Of a stretch of DNA of 64,000 nt, positions 15,227 to 41,980 are shown piece by piece. The position numbers and the translations under genes were made by a program. The stretch comes from Aeromonas rivuli (GTDB lineage: Bacteria > Pseudomonadota > Gammaproteobacteria > Enterobacterales > Aeromonadaceae). Each line of letters begins with the position of its first letter. The stretch's first letter is position 1. The DNA lies in the NCBI RefSeq assembly GCF_000820045.1, contig NZ_CDBJ01000100.1, forward strand, positions 135,086 through 199,085. Direction: 5' to 3'. The notes beneath the pieces were generated by a model that was not told where the DNA came from, searched no databases, and saw only the letters and a list, made by a program, of their open reading frames with translations.

Positions 15227-15370
15227 TTTCCACGAATTGTCTCGCCTGATGCAGCCTCTCCTCTGGATGCATGTTGTCGTAGGAACATTGGTCGTTAGGC
15301 GTTGCCGTGCAATCGTAGGGTCGATTAGCCGTCAGGCGTAATCGTCCGTTCCGCGGGTTGGAAGGGAATG

Positions 15371-15569
15371 GCACGGCGTCGCCGTGCAGGACACGAGGCC
15401 GCTGGCCTCGACGGGGTTTCGCCCGCCCTTCGGGCCGGGGCGAGTGACTTCTTGAAGGCCCAAGAAGTCACCAAGAAGGCCTTCCCCCGCTTATTCGCCC
15501 GACTACGTCGGGTTCCTTCGGCTCACCCGCTTGTCCGACGGCACGCGCCGACGGGCCATCCATGGCCCG
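15371..15569. repeat. array of GC-rich hairpins upstream of the defence-like genes
   Basis: Successive perfect inverted repeats: GCACGGC/GTC (15371-15387), CGAGGCC/GCT (15394-15410), GCCCG with a 5-base loop (15421-15435), GTGACTTCTTG with loop AAGGCC (15444-15471), CCCGAC/TAC (15498-15512) and CGGGCCAT/CC (15552-15569). The layout resembles a dispersed extragenic palindromic element rather than coding sequence. Confidence 0.65.
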
Positions 15570-15756
15570 GCGCCGCTCGCTCGACATCCTGTCTCGCGGT
15601 CTGGACAAGCGGACTCTCCTCTGCGAATAAGAGGGGGGGGCAATGCCGAACTGGCTTATGTGACTCCTCCTAACATTTACGGGGAAATCACTCCAACTAT
15701 TTGATAAATAGCGTAGTATCGGAAAATTACTGACCTCGGATGAGACTTTCACACTA

Positions 15757-17748
15757 GTGAAGAAAGACTCTACAGCTATTCCAATGAATCGGTTCCTTGT
15801 ACCTATGACTTCTATGTTTTACCTCCCGCGCAAGCTTTCTGGTGATAGCCAGATATACACGGAAGCAGAGCTATTGGCTGCTTCGAAGTTTGTTGTCGTC
15901 TTGGCCGAGCCTGGTGGGGGAAAAACCGAGCTGATGGAAAGTCTTGCGCGGCAGTTGGGGACAAAAGCCGTAACCGCAACCCGATTCCGGCATATAGGGG
16001 CAGAGGAAGAAAATAGCCCACTAGTGATCGATGCATTTGATGAGCTGGCCAAGATAGATCAGTCAGGAATTCACTCACTTCTAGCTAATGCCTGTAAGGC
16101 AAAAGCAACGCGAGTCATCATTTCAAGCCGTTCCAGTGAATGGAGCAATGCAGACACCCAGTCATTTCAAGAGTTTCTTGGTGCTCAGCCTCTGGTCGTC
16201 AGGCTGTGTGAATTTGGAGAGAACGATCAGCAAGCTATTTTCCTCCACCACTATCCAGAAGAGGACTTCGTCGCCTTCCGTTCTGAAGTGGCTCGATTTG
16301 AACTGGAACCATTACTGCCCAATCCACTGTTCCTGCAACTGTTTGCTGGCGCCTATATCGAGAGCGAAAGACACTTCATCGACAAGCGCTCCATTTTTAG
16401 CACTGCGGTAGAACGTCTGGCCAAAGAGGCCAACTCCAGTGTCAGGAGCACTGCCCACTCTCTGACATCACAGCAAAAGATTGACTTGGCATCGGAAGTA
16501 TTCGCCAAGCTACAGTTGTCTGGTGCTGAGGGGGTTAGTACTCAGGATGCTACGGCAGACCGGATCTACCCGACGCTGGCATCATTGCTTCACCCTATCG
16601 CTTCAAGAAACGATATTTTGGCAACCCGGCTCTTTAAACCGGGTGACCGAGTGGATCAACATCGTCCAGTGCATAAGATCGTTGCTGAATATTGCGCGGC
16701 GCACTATCTGACTCAACGGATTGCTGATCCAACCAAGCCACTGATGCTTGCAAACTGTTTCGCCGTCATCGCGCCCAACAATACGGTGCGAGATGAATTA
16801 CGGGGGCTATTGGGCTGGATGGCGGCACTGGGTAACCGCGCTATACAGGAAGAGGCCATCAGGATCGACCCTTATGCTGTGCTGGCCAACGGTGATCCTT
16901 CCCAATTGCTTCCTAGCTCAAAACGAATGCTGCTGGAGCAGTTGAGGAAATTTGCAGCTCAAGATCCCTACTTCAGGCGGGGTGATTACTGGCGCAGGTT
17001 CAGTATCGCTGGTTTCTTCACGCAGGATGTGGCAGACGAACTAAAGCCACTACTAGCAACTGGTAATGAAGGGCATTTGCGCGACTTGATTCTTGAATTG
17101 CTGGCGGGATCTGCGGCAATTGAATCTCTACAAAAAGAGTTGTGCCAGCTCGCTTTTGCTGCGCAAGAAAGCGCCCATACACGCATTCTGTCAACGAGAT
17201 GCTTGCTCAAGATAACAGGCCGCGATCACCACGCAGACTTGGCCCGTTTCATTGCAGAAGCGAGTGAGGTCTCGCTGGAGATCGCGGCAGAAATCATTCT
17301 AACGCTGGGTTATCAAACCTTTGAAAGGAAATATTTATCTGAATTTCTTTGTATATGCGCAACGCTCTATCCTGGCCACCAAGTGCGAGAACGTACCATA
17401 GGTGCTCGCTATTTTATAAAAAAATTCATTGCCGAAATTGATTTGTTAACTATCGAGTGGTTGTTGGATGAATTGACCAGAGACCTTGCCTGCCATTGTG
17501 GCAAAAAATACTACGATTGTGATTGTCTAAATGGTATAAGTAAAGTTGTCGGTTTACTTCTGGATCATTATTTTAAAATGGCTCTGGCACCATTTAATCC
17601 TGTGAGGGTCTGGGGATGGATTGAAAATTTGAGATTTCACAAGAGTAAACGCCAGGATGAAAGCCACGCTGTTCAAGTGCTCTGTAAAAATAATGGCTTA
17701 CGGCAAGGTATAATTTTACATGTTTTTTTCAAAACTGTACGAAGTTGA
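15757..17748 (+). CDS. NACHT/STAND-like P-loop NTPase, probable N-terminal half of a split defence gene
   Basis: A 663-residue protein. Walker A is EPGGGKT (51-57), Walker B is PLVIDAFDELA (88-98), and VIISSRSSEW (120-129) gives a sensor-1-like arginine. VHKIVAEYCAAHYL (305-318) resembles the helical motif after NACHT NTPase cores. The rest is predicted helical, repeat-like, with a CHC-x6-CDC cluster (579-590) that could hold zinc. GTG 15757 is tentative: ATG codons 10, 17 and 20 are alternatives and no strong ribosome site is seen. Base composition is much more AT-rich than flanking genes, especially in the 3' third. The frame ends just after a T7 tract, and the following frame looks like its continuation. 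Role in phage defence is inferred from architecture. Confidence 0.72.
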   Translation: MKKDSTAIPMNRFLVPMTSMFYLPRKLSGDSQIYTEAELLAASKFVVVLAEPGGGKTELMESLARQLGTKAVTATRFRHIGAEEENSPLVIDAFDELAKIDQSGIHSLLANACKAKATRVIISSRSSEWSNADTQSFQEFLGAQPLVVRLCEFGENDQQAIFLHHYPEEDFVAFRSEVARFELEPLLPNPLFLQLFAGAYIESERHFIDKRSIFSTAVERLAKEANSSVRSTAHSLTSQQKIDLASEVFAKLQLSGAEGVSTQDATADRIYPTLASLLHPIASRNDILATRLFKPGDRVDQHRPVHKIVAEYCAAHYLTQRIADPTKPLMLANCFAVIAPNNTVRDELRGLLGWMAALGNRAIQEEAIRIDPYAVLANGDPSQLLPSSKRMLLEQLRKFAAQDPYFRRGDYWRRFSIAGFFTQDVADELKPLLATGNEGHLRDLILELLAGSAAIESLQKELCQLAFAAQESAHTRILSTRCLLKITGRDHHADLARFIAEASEVSLEIAAEIILTLGYQTFERKYLSEFLCICATLYPGHQVRERTIGARYFIKKFIAEIDLLTIEWLLDELTRDLACHCGKKYYDCDCLNGISKVVGLLLDHYFKMALAPFNPVRVWGWIENLRFHKSKRQDESHAVQVLCKNNGLRQGIILHVFFKTVRS

Positions 17749-19819
17749 AGACATATCCTATGTGCTACGACATAAATTTGGTCGGTTTTCTCACTCAGGC
17801 CTAGTGTTTCAACCTGAAGATTATAAGTTTATAGTCGATCTTTCTTTTGAAATAAACAACCATGTCCTATGGGGTTTTTTCATCAAAACTCATGATTTTT
17901 ATTCATTAGCAGAAGCGAAAGAGAGAGATCCAATAAGACGGCATATGCGCAGGCACGCTTTATTAAAACCTTCCTTTATGCGCGAATGGATGAGACGTAA
18001 TTGGGCTGCTGCAACTCAAGCCTATCAAGAAAGAAATAAACCATATGCGCGGCTGGATAGAAAGCAACTCCGCCGTGAACGTCGGCGGCAGTTTGAAGTT
18101 CGCTCTGAAAATTTAAAGTTCATACATGACGATGCATTTTCTCTTGAAAGTATTCGTGGGTTTGAAATGTTTTCGCATTTTGCCTTCCTCATGTTGATGG
18201 AGCCAGAGAATGTAGAGGCTGAGTTTGGTTGTGGTAATAAGCTTCATGAATTGTTGCAAAACTGTTTTGAAATATTGTCTCCAAGAATACCTACATTAGA
18301 TAGGCTGGCTATCTCATCAGACTTAACTGTTGAAATGGTACTTTATGCAGCGAGCATAGAGACGATGCGTGTTCAAGGGAATCTTAATTCTGTTGAATAT
18401 CGACTTCTACAAGCTCTTCGTGTAGGTATCTATCGGGGGTATGACTCGATTTCGGAAGAGGAGAATAATAGACTTAAATCAGAGGTAGATCGCCAGCTAT
18501 TTCCCGATCTCGGAAGCGCGGAGCGTTTTCTAAGGGAATATATTGAGCCACAACTAGCTCAATCAGGATATATGACTGCAGATATATGGTTACTTCAGCG
18601 TGATGAGGCCTTTAGCCATCTGCGCCCCACTCTTTCTATAGAATGGCTTGCCCGTTTTCCAGAGTTGGCTATTTTACCACTGGACTCACTTTTTGAGATT
18701 GCAGCTCAATATGGTAATCGTTATGAATTGAACGAAATTATTATACTGCGTTGTGAAGAACTGATGTCAAAGTGGCCTATATTAACTGGCGACGAAGAGA
18801 TAGAACAGAGACGTACATTCTGGTTAGTACGTGCTTTCTACTTTTTGACCGATATACATGAGGAATATTGGAGTTGGTTGAGGATCGATAAGAATACAGT
18901 ATTTATACTATATGAGCTATCAGGGCGAATAAACCGCAGCGATCGCCAATATTGGCCCATGCTCACATCAAATAAGATTGAGGCTATTCTTGAAGCATTT
19001 ATAGACCACTGGCCTAAGGTAGTGCTGCCGAATCATTATGGTACTGGGAGCCCTAAAGAGGAGAAAGCATACAGATTTTTGAGTGAGGTGATTTGGTCTA
19101 TTAACTCTGATGATTCTAGTCATGCTCTACCAGTCCTTAACCGTCTGCTTAAAAACTCCCGCATTTCCGATTTTCATATGGACTTGCAGAGCATCTATGC
19201 GACCCAGCTAAGGCGGAGGGCATTGCGGGATTTCACTCCTCCGCTGCCACAAGAAATTCTCAAGCTGCTGGATGGTAATGAAGTTGTTACAGTGGAAGGC
19301 TTGCGCAAGCTGGTTCTTTACGAGTTGCAACAATATCAACAAGATATCCATGGGGGAGAGTTCAATTCAGCAGCTCGTTATTACGAGAAAGGTGAAAGGC
19401 TGGATGAAGTTAGTTCAACAGAGATCATTGCTGAACGTATCAAGTTGCGCCTTGAGCCGCAAAATATCACTGTCACACCGGAACATCAGCTAAAAGATCG
19501 AAATCGTAGTGATTTCACTGTCACCAAGATGATGGGTGGCCAGAGACGGCTTTTGGTGACTGAGGTCAAGGGACAATGGCATCGAGAACTTTACACGGCC
19601 GCATCCACCCAGCTCTATGAGCGCTACTCCATTCATCCAGATGCTGAACAGCAAGGCATATTCCTGGTTATCTGGTTTGGTGCGAATGAAGATGTTGCAG
19701 GACGAAAGAAGCACAGAATTGAATCTGCCGAGATGCTGAAATCAGATATTGAGAAAAAACTCCCCACCGAGTTATTAGGGCTAATTGACGTGTTTGTGTT
19801 GGATGTTTCTCGTCCTTAG
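17720..19819 (+). CDS. large helical protein with C-terminal PD-(D/E)XK nuclease motif, probable second half of the split NTPase gene
   Basis: A 699-residue protein whose ATG lies inside the previous gene (29-nt overlap). The N-terminal 550 residues are mostly helical with an Arg-rich patch (about residues 110-125) and no domain I recognise. Near the end, Asp598 in RNRSDFTV, Glu615-Val-Lys617 in LVTEVKGQW and Gln631 in ASTQLYERY form a PD-(D/E)XK plus Q pattern, as in restriction-type nucleases. The ribosome site for ATG 17720 is poor (AAGG, 11 bases away). Deleting one T from the T7 tract at 17723-17729 would fuse both frames into about 1350 residues. It is AT-rich and probably acquired. Nuclease activity is inferred from motif spacing. 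Confidence 0.7.
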   Translation: MFFSKLYEVEDISYVLRHKFGRFSHSGLVFQPEDYKFIVDLSFEINNHVLWGFFIKTHDFYSLAEAKERDPIRRHMRRHALLKPSFMREWMRRNWAAATQAYQERNKPYARLDRKQLRRERRRQFEVRSENLKFIHDDAFSLESIRGFEMFSHFAFLMLMEPENVEAEFGCGNKLHELLQNCFEILSPRIPTLDRLAISSDLTVEMVLYAASIETMRVQGNLNSVEYRLLQALRVGIYRGYDSISEEENNRLKSEVDRQLFPDLGSAERFLREYIEPQLAQSGYMTADIWLLQRDEAFSHLRPTLSIEWLARFPELAILPLDSLFEIAAQYGNRYELNEIIILRCEELMSKWPILTGDEEIEQRRTFWLVRAFYFLTDIHEEYWSWLRIDKNTVFILYELSGRINRSDRQYWPMLTSNKIEAILEAFIDHWPKVVLPNHYGTGSPKEEKAYRFLSEVIWSINSDDSSHALPVLNRLLKNSRISDFHMDLQSIYATQLRRRALRDFTPPLPQEILKLLDGNEVVTVEGLRKLVLYELQQYQQDIHGGEFNSAARYYEKGERLDEVSSTEIIAERIKLRLEPQNITVTPEHQLKDRNRSDFTVTKMMGGQRRLLVTEVKGQWHRELYTAASTQLYERYSIHPDAEQQGIFLVIWFGANEDVAGRKKHRIESAEMLKSDIEKKLPTELLGLIDVFVLDVSRP

Positions 19820-39881: not shown

Positions 39882-40895
39882 TCACTCAGCCCCCCCATTG
39901 ACCCGCCGCAGCACCACCGCCTTGTTCTCTTTACTGCGCTGGAAATAGGTCTCCAGCCTGGCCCGGGTGTCGGCCACCTCGGCCAGCAGATAAGCCACGA
40001 AGTAATCGCTCTTGACGTCTATCGCCTCATTCAACCCCTTGATGCCGGAGCCCGCCGCCAGCGCAGGCAGGCTCGTCATCTCCGCCTTGCTTTGCCAGCC
40101 TTTCCTGGGGCGATCCTTGAGCACGCCCTTGGCGTCATCCACACTGATCTTTCCCAGGTAGAGCGCCGCCAGCAGCTCGGGCTGATCCGGGGATATGGTA
40201 TTGATATTCACCAGTAACTTGTCGTTTGGCAGGGCGCAGACATAGGGTGCCAGCCTGGCATATAGCTTGCCGCTGACCCCACGCACCGCCCGTAACTCAT
40301 CCACCCCCAGCATCTTCTGATTGGCGGGCAGATAGGGCTGACTCAGCCCTTCATAATAAGCGTCTTCGGCCCCATAGCTGGAGACCAGTACCGTATCGCT
40401 GTCGGTCCAGTCACGCACCGCATCCGTCAGCTGGGTTGCCTCGTATTCGTCGATCTCAAGCTGGGTCAACAGGGTGCGGAACACCTTGACGGGATAAGGC
40501 TGGTTGGCCAGATCGTCCCCACTGTCCTCCTGCTGCCCTACGCTCAGGCTGTTGAGGTTGAAGCAGCTTTGCAGGTCACGCACCTCTCCCTTGAGGGTGC
40601 CATCCTCGACCGGAAATATCACATCCTTGCGCGCCCAGTACTGGCTCAGGCTGACCACCTTGGGGTCATCCTTGAAGTCCTGGGCCAGTATCTTGCTGAC
40701 CAGCGCCTCGGTGGAGATGGCATACCACCATGCCTGCTTGCCGGTGCTGAGGTTGGCAGTGCGCCTGAGCTCAAGCTGCAAGCGGCCACTCATGTTGCTG
40801 GCGATGATCACCATGACCGAGAGGATCAACAACACCACCAGCAGTGCCATGCCCCGGCTTCTGCCCGGCCCGGCGCCTCTATTGTGTCGGTGCAT
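39882..40895 (-). CDS. gspK: type II secretion minor pseudopilin K (ExeK)
   Basis: A 337-residue large pseudopilin. The prepilin site is SRG with [13 protein letters not shown] after it, lacking Glu5 as usual for GspK, and a large globular domain follows with two acidic insertions and Cys in QSCFNL and APYVCALP. It caps the pseudopilus tip with GspI and GspJ. ATG 40895 overlaps gspJ by 17 nt; an ATG-like start nine codons upstream is less likely. An 85-bp gap separates it from gspL, the largest break inside gspH-N. Confidence 0.94.
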
Positions 40896-41544
40896 CTTCG
40901 AGCCTCTGGCCGCCGGCCCCAATCAGAAACTGGCGACGTATGGTGCCGTAATCGTCCAGATCCAGTTCCACCGCCAAGCCGTCAGGCAAGCGCTCCTCCT
41001 GGGTCCACTCCGACTTCCAGCCCCCCTCGCTGTAGAAGAAGAGGCGCAGTCCCGTCACCCGGTCGAGCAACCCTTGCACCCTGGGCTCGGTGCCTATCAC
41101 TGGGTCCGGGTAGAGATAGCTGAGCCGCTCCAGCTGGTGATCCTTGAGCCGCCAACCGACCCGCTGCAGGCCAGATCGCGGCAAGATACCATCCGGGTTG
41201 AGCCAGCCCCCCCGGATGAAGGCCATGCCCCAATCATCACTCTGCTGGCCAAACTGGCTGGCAGCCAGCAACACCCGGTTATTTTCACCCTCGATGCGGC
41301 CGGTACGCGGTACCATCTGGCTCACGTCCCGCTCCAGCACATCGAAGGCGCGCTGTAATTGGGCCAGACGCACCTCTTTCTTCCTGGCCACCTCATCGCT
41401 GGTGAGCACCCCCTGCAACACCTGATAGGCACCCAGACTCAGGCCGGCGAAGATGGCGATCGCCACCAGCATCTCCAGCAGGGTAAAGCCCCCCTGCTTG
41501 CTCAGATGCCGGACCTGCGGCCCTGGCGCGGACGATGACCTCAT
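40879..41544 (-). CDS. gspJ: type II secretion minor pseudopilin J (ExeJ)
   Basis: A 221-residue pseudopilin with the prepilin peptidase site [10 protein letters not shown] after a 19-residue leader. Part of the tip complex with GspI and GspK. ATG 41544 has GGAGA upstream; an in-frame ATG at 41595 would overlap gspI and lengthen the leader. It ends inside gspK. Confidence 0.93.
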
Positions 41545-41581
41545 TGGTGTCTCCAGCGGCATGGCACCGCGAGCGGGTCGT

Positions 41582-41980
41582 TTAGCGGCTGACATAGGTG
41601 CGCATCATGGCCACGGGACTCTCGGATTTGGGGGCGGTACGCACCTCCAGATCCAGTGCCTTGAAGTTGCTGTCGGCGGTAGCGACACCGCGATAACGCC
41701 AATACCAGCGCTGTCCCGCCATCTCTTCATCCCCCTCGACCCAGCTGTCGCTCGGCCAGGAACCTTCGAGTCGCTGCTGCACCAGCTGGTTCTGGACAAC
41801 CCAGGTCGCCAGGGTTTTCTGTTCCAGATAGCTGAGCCCGGAGAGGTGTTCGCTCGCCGTCTTCATCACCGCCAGCCCGGCGATGGCAAACACCACCAGG
41901 GCCACCATCACCTCGAGCAGCGTCATGCCCCTGGCCTGGCGAAGCCCACCATGGCGCAGCACCATGCGCGGCGTTCTCAT
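41582..41980 (-). CDS. gspI: type II secretion minor pseudopilin I (ExeI)
   Basis: A 132-residue pseudopilin with the cleavage site [10 protein letters not shown] and the usual hydrophobic helix. It nucleates the pseudopilus tip. The start overlaps gspH by 4 nt (ATGA), indicating translational coupling. Confidence 0.94.

What the first reader, a model, noticed from the sequence alone, without database searches (positions are those of the whole stretch)
15757..19819. Candidate antiphage locus: NACHT/STAND-like NTPase joined to a PD-(D/E)XK nuclease domain
Seen: Walker A EPGGGKT, Walker B VIDAFDELA, sensor-like SSR and a helical EYCAAHYL motif in the first frame; Asp598, Glu615-x-Lys617 and Gln631 near the end of the second; AT-rich composition against a GC-rich host between two housekeeping genes. 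Known: STAND NTPases with nuclease modules (Avs-type) defend against phage. Inference: this pair, or the ~1350-residue fusion, senses infection and cuts DNA. Unlike the Avs layout I know, the nuclease is at the far C-terminus, after a long helical region.
Basis: partly seen in the sequence, partly recalled or inferred. Interest (0 to 1): 0.8.

Follow-up and report, generated by a model that had tools for sequence, protein, structure and literature searches.

The report
Broken EruA antiphage NACHT-nuclease gene
A foreign, AT-rich gene for a known type of bacterial immune protein (an ATP-driven sensor with a probable DNA-cutting domain at its tail) sits between two housekeeping genes, but in this sequence it is split in two by a frame change and probably does not work.

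Summary
In detail: the motifs and the AT-rich composition are there. The two frames are not a gene pair but the halves of one EruA-family protein (NCBIfam NF058535, 'NACHT domain-containing antiphage protein EruA'). Alone they score 713 and 609.5 bits; read through the frame change, 1328 bits against a cut-off of 1000. Homologues are normally one ORF of about 1345 aa; all 51 of 54 genome loci that span the place do so in one frame. In 52 aligned homologues the P-loop Lys, Walker B acids and Asp/Glu-x-Lys/Gln of the C-terminal domain are invariant. AlphaFold2 gives that domain a PD-(D/E)XK-like fold (pLDDT 84.7, nearest to BamHI, Z 8.8). The frames change at a T7 run; 52 homologues have no run over 5 there, and there is no RNA structure signal. 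So this copy is most likely a recent loss-of-function allele or a sequence error, not programmed recoding. In 75 genomes of the bacterial family EruA was found in 2. The ppc-ybaK junction is variable in the genus. It is a broken member of a known kind; the C-terminal nuclease is the family's normal layout.

The parts
15805..17748 (+). eruA N-terminal part (NACHT NTPase and first helical region), ends at a stop reached because of the frame change; ORF listed from GTG 15757
   Evidence: NF058535 713 bits, profile 10-637; start by alignment with homologues
15907..15927 (+). Walker A, EPGGGKT (ORF1 51-57)
   Evidence: G53, G55, K56 invariant in 52 of 52 rows
15928..16260 (+). NACHT domain match (ORF1 58-168)
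   Evidence: Pfam PF05729, E 5.5e-07, over gathering score
16024..16050 (+). Walker B, VIDAFDELA (ORF1 90-98)
   Evidence: D92, D95, E96 invariant in 52 of 52 rows
17491..17526 (+). four-cysteine motif CxC...CxC (ORF1 C579, C581, C588, C590), possible metal site
   Evidence: each Cys in 50 of 52 rows; metal binding is inference
17723..17729 (+). run of seven T where the coding frame changes
   Evidence: sequence; the equivalent 45-base stretch in 52 homologues has no run longer than 5; 51 of 51 genome loci that span it stay in one frame
17720..19819 (+). eruA C-terminal part (helical region and nuclease domain), in the other frame
   Evidence: NF058535 609.5 bits, profile 648-1318
19406..19804 (+). 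predicted PD-(D/E)XK-like nuclease core (ORF2 563-695)
   Evidence: AlphaFold2 on 48 sequences, mean pLDDT 84.7, pTM 0.83; VIA-align Z 8.8 to BamHI
19511..19612 (+). predicted active-site residues D598, E615, K617, Q631 of ORF2
   Evidence: all four invariant in 52 of 52 rows
15394..15496 (+). non-coding element upstream, 91% identical (103 bases) to the ppc side of a different insert at the same junction in genome G010
   Evidence: blastn; related copies elsewhere in the own genome

Best explanation
The locus is one horizontally acquired gene of the EruA family, a stand-alone antiphage NACHT NTPase with a C-terminal PD-(D/E)XK nuclease, inserted between ppc and ybaK. In this sequence it is interrupted by a frame change at a T7 run. 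For an intact member the most likely working is this: an unknown phage cue is sensed by the long helical region; ATP binding by the N-terminal NACHT module drives oligomerisation; this brings C-terminal nuclease domains together, and they cut DNA and stop the infection, probably at the cost of the cell. Shown here: family membership, conserved NTPase and nuclease residues, predicted nuclease fold, scattered distribution, the frame change. Inferred: sensing, oligomerisation, DNA cleavage, cell death. As written, this copy would make a nuclease-less sensor half and, at best, a separately initiated nuclease half, so it is probably inactive; the cause is either a recent mutation or an error in the record.
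For: NCBIfam EruA: halves 713 and 609.5 bits, read through 1328.2 bits over the 1000-bit cut-off; six other members, scanned as a check, 1242-1531 bits. Homologues are normally one ORF of about 1345 aa, e.g. on Vibrio campbellii pVIBHAR and Phaeobacter pP72_b. Active-site residues invariant in 52 rows. Nuclease: predicted strand and helix order as in PD-(D/E)XK enzymes; the first 28 entries ranked by VIA-align are nucleases or nuclease effectors, by title or general knowledge (BamHI, BstYI, BglII, Can2, HamA, Cap4 and others), the first small GTPase coming at rank 29. Frame change only in the window: 51 of 51 spanning genome loci stay in one frame. No further stop in either half, and only 3 of 140 columns invariant in 50 other rows are changed (leave-one-out median 1, maximum 9 among those rows), so the break is young or artefactual. 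Mobile: 54 genome loci in widely separate bacteria, plasmids predicted conjugative, 5 viral contigs.
Against: No experiment. The antiphage label rests on an NCBIfam name whose source paper I did not find in the open PMC library. The nuclease fold is predicted: no Foldseek PDB match reaches E 1e-3 (best 5.2e-3), no Pfam nuclease model hits, and Z 8.8 is only slightly above the 7 to 8 that models without a clear match often reach (note). A functional split (reinitiation at ATG 17720) or low-level slippage at T7 is not excluded. Whether the frame change is real or an assembly error is not settled.
Confidence: 0.8

Rival explanations
1. The frame change is a sequencing or assembly error and the strain carries an intact eruA.
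For: The change lies in a homopolymer; apart from it the gene shows no decay. Two records of one V. campbellii strain's plasmid show the same gene intact in one and split, at another place, in the other, so such differences between records do occur in this family.
Against: The window has 18 runs of 7 or more (this one included), and an A7 inside ORF1 stays in frame. Of 47 window frames with a homologue in two congeners, 34 match over at least 90% of it; of the 13 others I looked at four, and one (around 40.9-42.0 kb) might be another frame change.
Confidence: 0.35
2. Programmed recoding or a phase-variable T tract makes both a NACHT-only protein and the full-length nuclease protein from this gene.
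For: A T7 run at the overlap of the two frames; both frames are otherwise conserved.
Against: No run over 5 at this place in 52 homologues; no RNA structure beyond chance (z 0.33, 124 of 200 shuffles fold at least as well); seven is short for polymerase slippage (general knowledge).
Confidence: 0.07
3. A genuine two-protein system in which the NACHT part and the nuclease part are separate, translationally coupled proteins.
For: ORF2 has its own ATG at 17720 overlapping the end of ORF1.
Against: None of 51 spanning genome loci is split here; I see no convincing ribosome-binding site in the 30 bases before ATG 17720 (sequence printed).
Confidence: 0.06
4. Not a defence protein: a NACHT-nuclease of some other role, or a remnant with no function in any host.
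For: No direct evidence of defence was produced here; the 2023 PADLOC library has no EruA-like model: at E 1 ORF1 has two weak partial hits (PtuA 0.0077, mad8 0.034) and ORF2 none, the read-through protein none at 0.01.
Against: NCBIfam names the family antiphage; scattered distribution, with copies on plasmids and viral contigs; flanks of homologues include some Avs2, type I restriction, AbiE and integrase matches, 2 or 3 members each of 133 (no control run).
Confidence: 0.07

Closest known systems
EruA (NCBIfam NF058535, NACHT domain-containing antiphage protein)
   Same: Whole-length match read through, 1328 bits over the 1000-bit cut-off; same NACHT-helical-nuclease order, same conserved residues
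   Different: The window copy is split into two frames; normal members are one ORF
HyoA (NCBIfam NF058534)
   Same: NACHT protein of similar length (1430 positions); weak match (85.8 bits, positions 202-635 of the model); an intact HyoA lies in genome G023 of the same genus (1511.9 bits)
   Different: Far below its 1200-bit cut-off; separate family
bNACHT25/bNACHT32 (bacterial NACHT proteins)
   Same: NACHT module plus PD-(D/E)XK DNase in one protein; there infection triggers DNA degradation that needs the nuclease (PMC12169576, passages seen)
   Different: Their effector is N-terminal and the sensor C-terminal (same passages); in EruA the P-loop lies about 35 residues from the N-terminus and the nuclease is at the C-terminus
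Avs (AVAST) STAND NTPases
   Same: STAND NTPase, some with a nuclease effector (general knowledge)
   Different: No PADLOC Avs model matches; effector at the other end of the protein
BamHI/BstYI-type restriction endonucleases; Can2, Cap4, HamA nuclease domains
   Same: Predicted fold of the C-terminal domain (Z 6.1-8.8)
   Different: 7-14% sequence identity; fold resemblance only

Membership tests
EruA (NF058535) | score over the curated cut-off of 1000 bits for the whole protein | tested here: met
   1328.2 bits for the read-through protein P0001
EruA (NF058535) | one continuous reading frame of about 1320-1350 aa | tested here: not met
   two frames of 663 and 699 aa, each under the cut-off alone; so it is a broken member
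EruA (NF058535) | invariant P-loop Lys, Walker B acids and Asp...Glu-x-Lys...Gln residues | tested here: met
   all present in the window; invariant in 52 of 52 rows
EruA (NF058535) | protection against phage | not testable with these tools
   needs phage assays
NACHT (PF05729) | score over Pfam's gathering score | tested here: met
   30 bits against 26.7
PD-(D/E)XK nuclease superfamily | alpha-beta-beta-beta-alpha-beta core with Asp and Glu-x-Lys on the central strands | tested here: met
   in a predicted model only, pLDDT 84.7; top VIA-align neighbours are such nucleases, Z up to 8.8; no PDB match under E 1e-3 in Foldseek
PD-(D/E)XK nuclease superfamily | sequence match to a curated nuclease model | tested here: inconclusive
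   no Pfam nuclease model among the matches of the window or of the tails of 48 rows; such models miss many members (general knowledge)
PD-(D/E)XK nuclease superfamily | DNA cleavage | not testable with these tools
   needs biochemistry
HyoA (NF058534) | score over the curated cut-off of 1200 bits | tested here: not met
   85.8 bits
bNACHT layout (effector N-terminal, sensor C-terminal) | effector domain before the NTPase | tested here: not met
   Walker A lies about 35 residues after the conserved first Met; predicted nuclease is C-terminal; bNACHT layout as in PMC12169576 (passages)
Avs (PADLOC models) | match to an Avs model | tested here: not met
   no Avs hit at E 1 for either half or at 0.01 for the read-through protein

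The most novel reading that the evidence does not exclude
The T7 run is a genetic switch: a strain-specific, slip-prone tract in a costly immune gene that turns the nuclease half off and on (or makes a mixture of NACHT-only and full-length protein), i.e. a phase-variable STAND nuclease. The recurrent breakage of eruA in other genomes would then reflect selection to silence it.
Probability: 0.07. Interest if true: 0.55.

Novelty: new member of a known kind. Interest (0 to 1): 0.25.

Why it matters
It shows that an apparent two-gene defence system is a broken copy of a family already named antiphage, and it documents that family's anatomy: a stand-alone NACHT protein with its probable nuclease at the C-terminus, the reverse of the bNACHT layout. 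If the layout holds experimentally, it asks how NACHT oligomerisation can activate an effector at the other end of the protein. The frequent breakage of eruA (6 of 49 genome loci not cut by a contig end, besides the window) hints at a cost of keeping it.

Tried and rejected
Two-gene system: rejected, none of 51 spanning genome loci is split here. Programmed frameshifting: no comparable run in 52 homologues and no structure signal.

Literature. Searches for the paper that named antiphage EruA/HyoA found none in the open PMC library; most subscription papers are not held, so it may well exist. One search lists 13 papers with 'EruA' or 'HyoA' as a word, none on phage by title; the EruA of PMC12839154 (listing and start of abstract seen) is a SlyA-like regulator, a homonym. 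PMC13092281 (passages seen) holds no word beginning 'Eru' or 'Hyo'. PMC12169576 and PMC10952713: passages seen.

Fold. The whole ORF2 with a 6-row alignment folded poorly (mean pLDDT 55.6, nuclease part mostly under 50) and was not used; the tail was then folded alone with 48 rows. Profiles against solved structures gave nothing significant for ORF2, the tail or the NACHT half. In the viral structure library one unnamed protein matched under E 1e-3. PHROGs gave one weak unknown-function match. One phage record has a 26% match over half of ORF2.

Defence-island test: 133 flanking ORFs were scanned, picked by hand from 202 mechanical ORFs (at most two a side). The 68 left out first were mostly under 150 aa, three were pieces of eruA itself, a few were longer ones left out without a rule; one more went for the residue limit. 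They match 386 PADLOC families at E 1e-5, the commonest with 3 members each. No control set was scanned, so I give it little weight.

Assembly quality: a blastn indel list against two congeners was too noisy to judge; replaced by the frame comparison, which covers 47 frames and leaves 9 of the 13 incomplete ones unexamined.

Caveat on counts: the 52 rows were chosen for an ORF of 1290-1450 aa, so they cannot themselves show that no homologue is split; one search was made for that, on all 54 genome loci. The genome scan works through two short peptide patterns and the genome searches score a limited number of candidates per genome (at most 12 and 7), so absences are lower-bound statements.
Full report
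Observation. ORF1 (15757-17748, 663 aa) and ORF2 (17720-19819, 699 aa) lie in different frames and overlap by 29 bases. GC is 0.481 and 0.426, with third-position GC of 0.471 and 0.383, against 0.831 and 0.812 at third positions of ppc and ybaK. NCBIfam identifies the flanks as phosphoenolpyruvate carboxylase and a YbaK-type Cys-tRNA(Pro) deacylase, with argE-, argC- and argB-type genes further upstream; of ten genes scanned (these included) none is named as a defence gene and three had no match at E 1e-10.

Identity. Pfam finds a NACHT domain in ORF1 over its gathering score and nothing in ORF2. NCBIfam finds the same model in both: NF058535, 'NACHT domain-containing antiphage protein EruA', 1318 positions, ORF1 covering 10-637 and ORF2 648-1318. 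Reading through the frame change gives 1328.2 bits over the 1000-bit cut-off. Six other members scanned as a check score 1242-1531 bits. The second NCBIfam relative, HyoA, is far under its cut-off (85.8 against 1200).

Homologues. tblastn against plasmids finds 23 records for ORF1 and 22 for ORF2; the closest, on plasmid pVIBHAR of Vibrio campbellii (predicted conjugative), is one ORF of 1347 aa with 58.6% and 51.1% identity to the two halves. A pattern-based scan of one genome each for 84,980 species gave 54 loci, by record title in Pseudomonas, Marinobacter, Pseudoalteromonas, Zobellella, Desulfoluna, Photorhabdus, two cyanobacteria and others; viral contigs gave 5, one of them the same stretch as a genome locus (L070 and L058). 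The closest of the aligned rows to the window is that of Zobellella (L039, 63.2% over both halves). In 75 genomes of the bacterial family one holds an EruA over the cut-off (G043, 1530 bits, no stop inside), beside the window's own broken copy. In 37 genomes of the genus 5 have any match at E 1e-3, but apart from the window's own none exceeds 88 bits; one of these, in G023, is an intact HyoA (1511.9 bits to the HyoA model).

Conservation. In an alignment of 52 homologues (4 on plasmids, 4 viral contigs, the rest genome loci; chosen for ORF length; L060, whose C-terminus is cut by an insertion, and the duplicate L070 included) 178 columns are at least 95% one residue. K56 of the P-loop, Walker B D92, D95 and E96, R125, H306 and E311 of ORF1, and E588, D598, E615, K617 and Q631 of ORF2 are in 52 of 52. 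A CxC...CxC motif (C579, C581, C588, C590) is in 50 of 52 each. The P-loop lies about 35 residues after the conserved first Met, which leaves no room for an N-terminal effector.

Nuclease fold. No Pfam nuclease model matches the window or the tails of 48 rows, and sequence profiles find no significant solved relative. AlphaFold2 on 48 sequences gives a confident model of the last 190 residues (pLDDT 84.7, pTM 0.83), with helix 54-72, strands 75-78, 89-96 and 99-109, helix 115-129 and strand 137-143. D598, E615/K617 and Q631 (model 89, 106/108, 122) fall at the start of the second of these strands, on the third and on the following helix, as in PD-(D/E)XK enzymes (general knowledge). Foldseek matches are weak (best E 5.2e-3, none under 1e-3) but led by MspJI, PaqCI and BamHI; unrelated proteins such as acetyl-CoA carboxylase are also among the first ten. 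VIA-align ranks BamHI (Z 8.8, rmsd 4.5 A over 151 residues), BstYI, EcoT38I, OkrAI, BglII, Can2, HamA and Cap4 at Z 6.1-8.8, while small GTPases start at Z 6.0, rank 29. Fold and residues together make a nuclease likely; activity is not shown.

The frame change. The frames change at a run of seven T (17723-17729). Of 54 genome loci 51 span this place, all 51 in one frame and without a stop there; the other three do not reach it. In the 52 aligned homologues the longest single-base run in the equivalent 45 bases is 5. The 111 bases around the run fold no better than shuffles (z 0.33; 124 of 200 at least as good). Neither half has another stop or frame change, and 3 of 140 columns invariant in 50 other rows are altered, within the range of those rows themselves (leave-one-out median 1, maximum 9). 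So this is a young break or an error in the record. The window has 18 runs of 7 or more including this one; an A7 inside ORF1 stays in frame. Of 47 window frames with a homologue in congeners G010 or G012, 34 match over at least 90% of it; of the other 13 I examined four, and one stretch (40894-41960) may hold another frame change. I lean to a real mutation, without settling it.

Breakage elsewhere. Of 54 genome loci 5 are cut by a contig end (L041, L044, L059, L063, L067); of the remaining 49, 6 are broken: single in-frame stops in L034, L042 and L045, transposase-bearing insertions in L050 and L060 (transposase by my reading of the inserted frames, no family scan) and a short remnant with an altered P-loop in L068. 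Some of these may be record errors too. A Klebsiella plasmid copy is broken into pieces in all three frames. One of two records of the V. campbellii plasmid has the gene split, the other intact.

Site. In 36 other genomes of the genus, ppc was found upstream of ybaK in the stretch held for 24; the distance ranges from 135 to 4867 bp and is 367 bp or less in 5. In 12 genomes ppc was not in the stretch held (1.5 to 15.4 kb). Ten of 27 insert ORFs listed from 16 of these junctions were scanned with Pfam: GGDEF, EAL, EamA and acetyltransferase proteins, three without a match, and in G010 an AT-rich DUF2971 gene. The latter matches PADLOC's candidate system PDC-S31 (E 1.7e-30), and its insert shares a 103-base flank (91%) with the window's. 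So the junction is variable in the genus and holds a defence or candidate defence gene in at least two genomes. None of 65 homologue loci (L009-L073) has ppc or ybaK in the flank held.

Mechanism. By analogy with bNACHT25 and bNACHT32, where a PD-(D/E)XK DNase joined to a NACHT module degrades DNA after phage sensing (PMC12169576, passages), the likely working of intact EruA is sensing by the long helical region, ATP-dependent oligomerisation and DNA cleavage. The layout is reversed relative to those proteins. Every step beyond the anatomy is inference. The copy in the window is probably not functional.

Verdict. A correct and careful observation of a real defence-type gene, but a broken member of a family that NCBI already names; ordinary, with mild interest for the reversed layout, the variable site and the frequent breakage.

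Noticed in passing
L104 13846-14775 (genome G010, ppc-ybaK junction): A different AT-rich insert at the same junction: a DUF2971 gene matching PADLOC candidate system PDC-S31 (E 1.7e-30), whose insert shares a 103-base, 91% identical flank with the window's. The junction may be a small defence hotspot.
   Followed up: partly
L034, L042, L045, L050, L060, L068: eruA is broken in 6 of 49 genome loci not cut by a contig end, by in-frame stops, transposase-bearing insertions or truncation, suggesting that it is often costly to keep.
   Followed up: partly
window 40894-41960: A 392-aa stop-to-stop frame of congener G010 maps to two different window frames here; a possible second frame change or an artefact of stop-to-stop frames.
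   Followed up: partly
window 15298-15637: Non-coding stretch upstream of eruA with 73-91% similar copies on contigs C50 and C52 of the same genome; a dispersed intergenic repeat.
   Followed up: partly
L002 880-5232 (genome G023): An intact HyoA-family antiphage NACHT protein (1511.9 bits over the 1200-bit cut-off) in another genome of the genus.
   Followed up: partly
L008 1210-3285 (own genome, contig C32): A 691-aa protein with a NACHT-like P-loop region and, by eye, many pentapeptide-type repeats, matching EruA weakly (E 1.8e-7) in the NTPase only.
   Followed up: no
window 17491-17526 (ORF1 C579-C590): A CxC...CxC motif conserved in 50 of 52 EruA homologues; a possible structural zinc site of unknown role.
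   Followed up: no
L105 12493-13116 and 13339-14985: Two ORFs without a Pfam match at E 1e-5 or a PADLOC match at 0.01 in the ppc-ybaK junction of genome G002.
   Followed up: no
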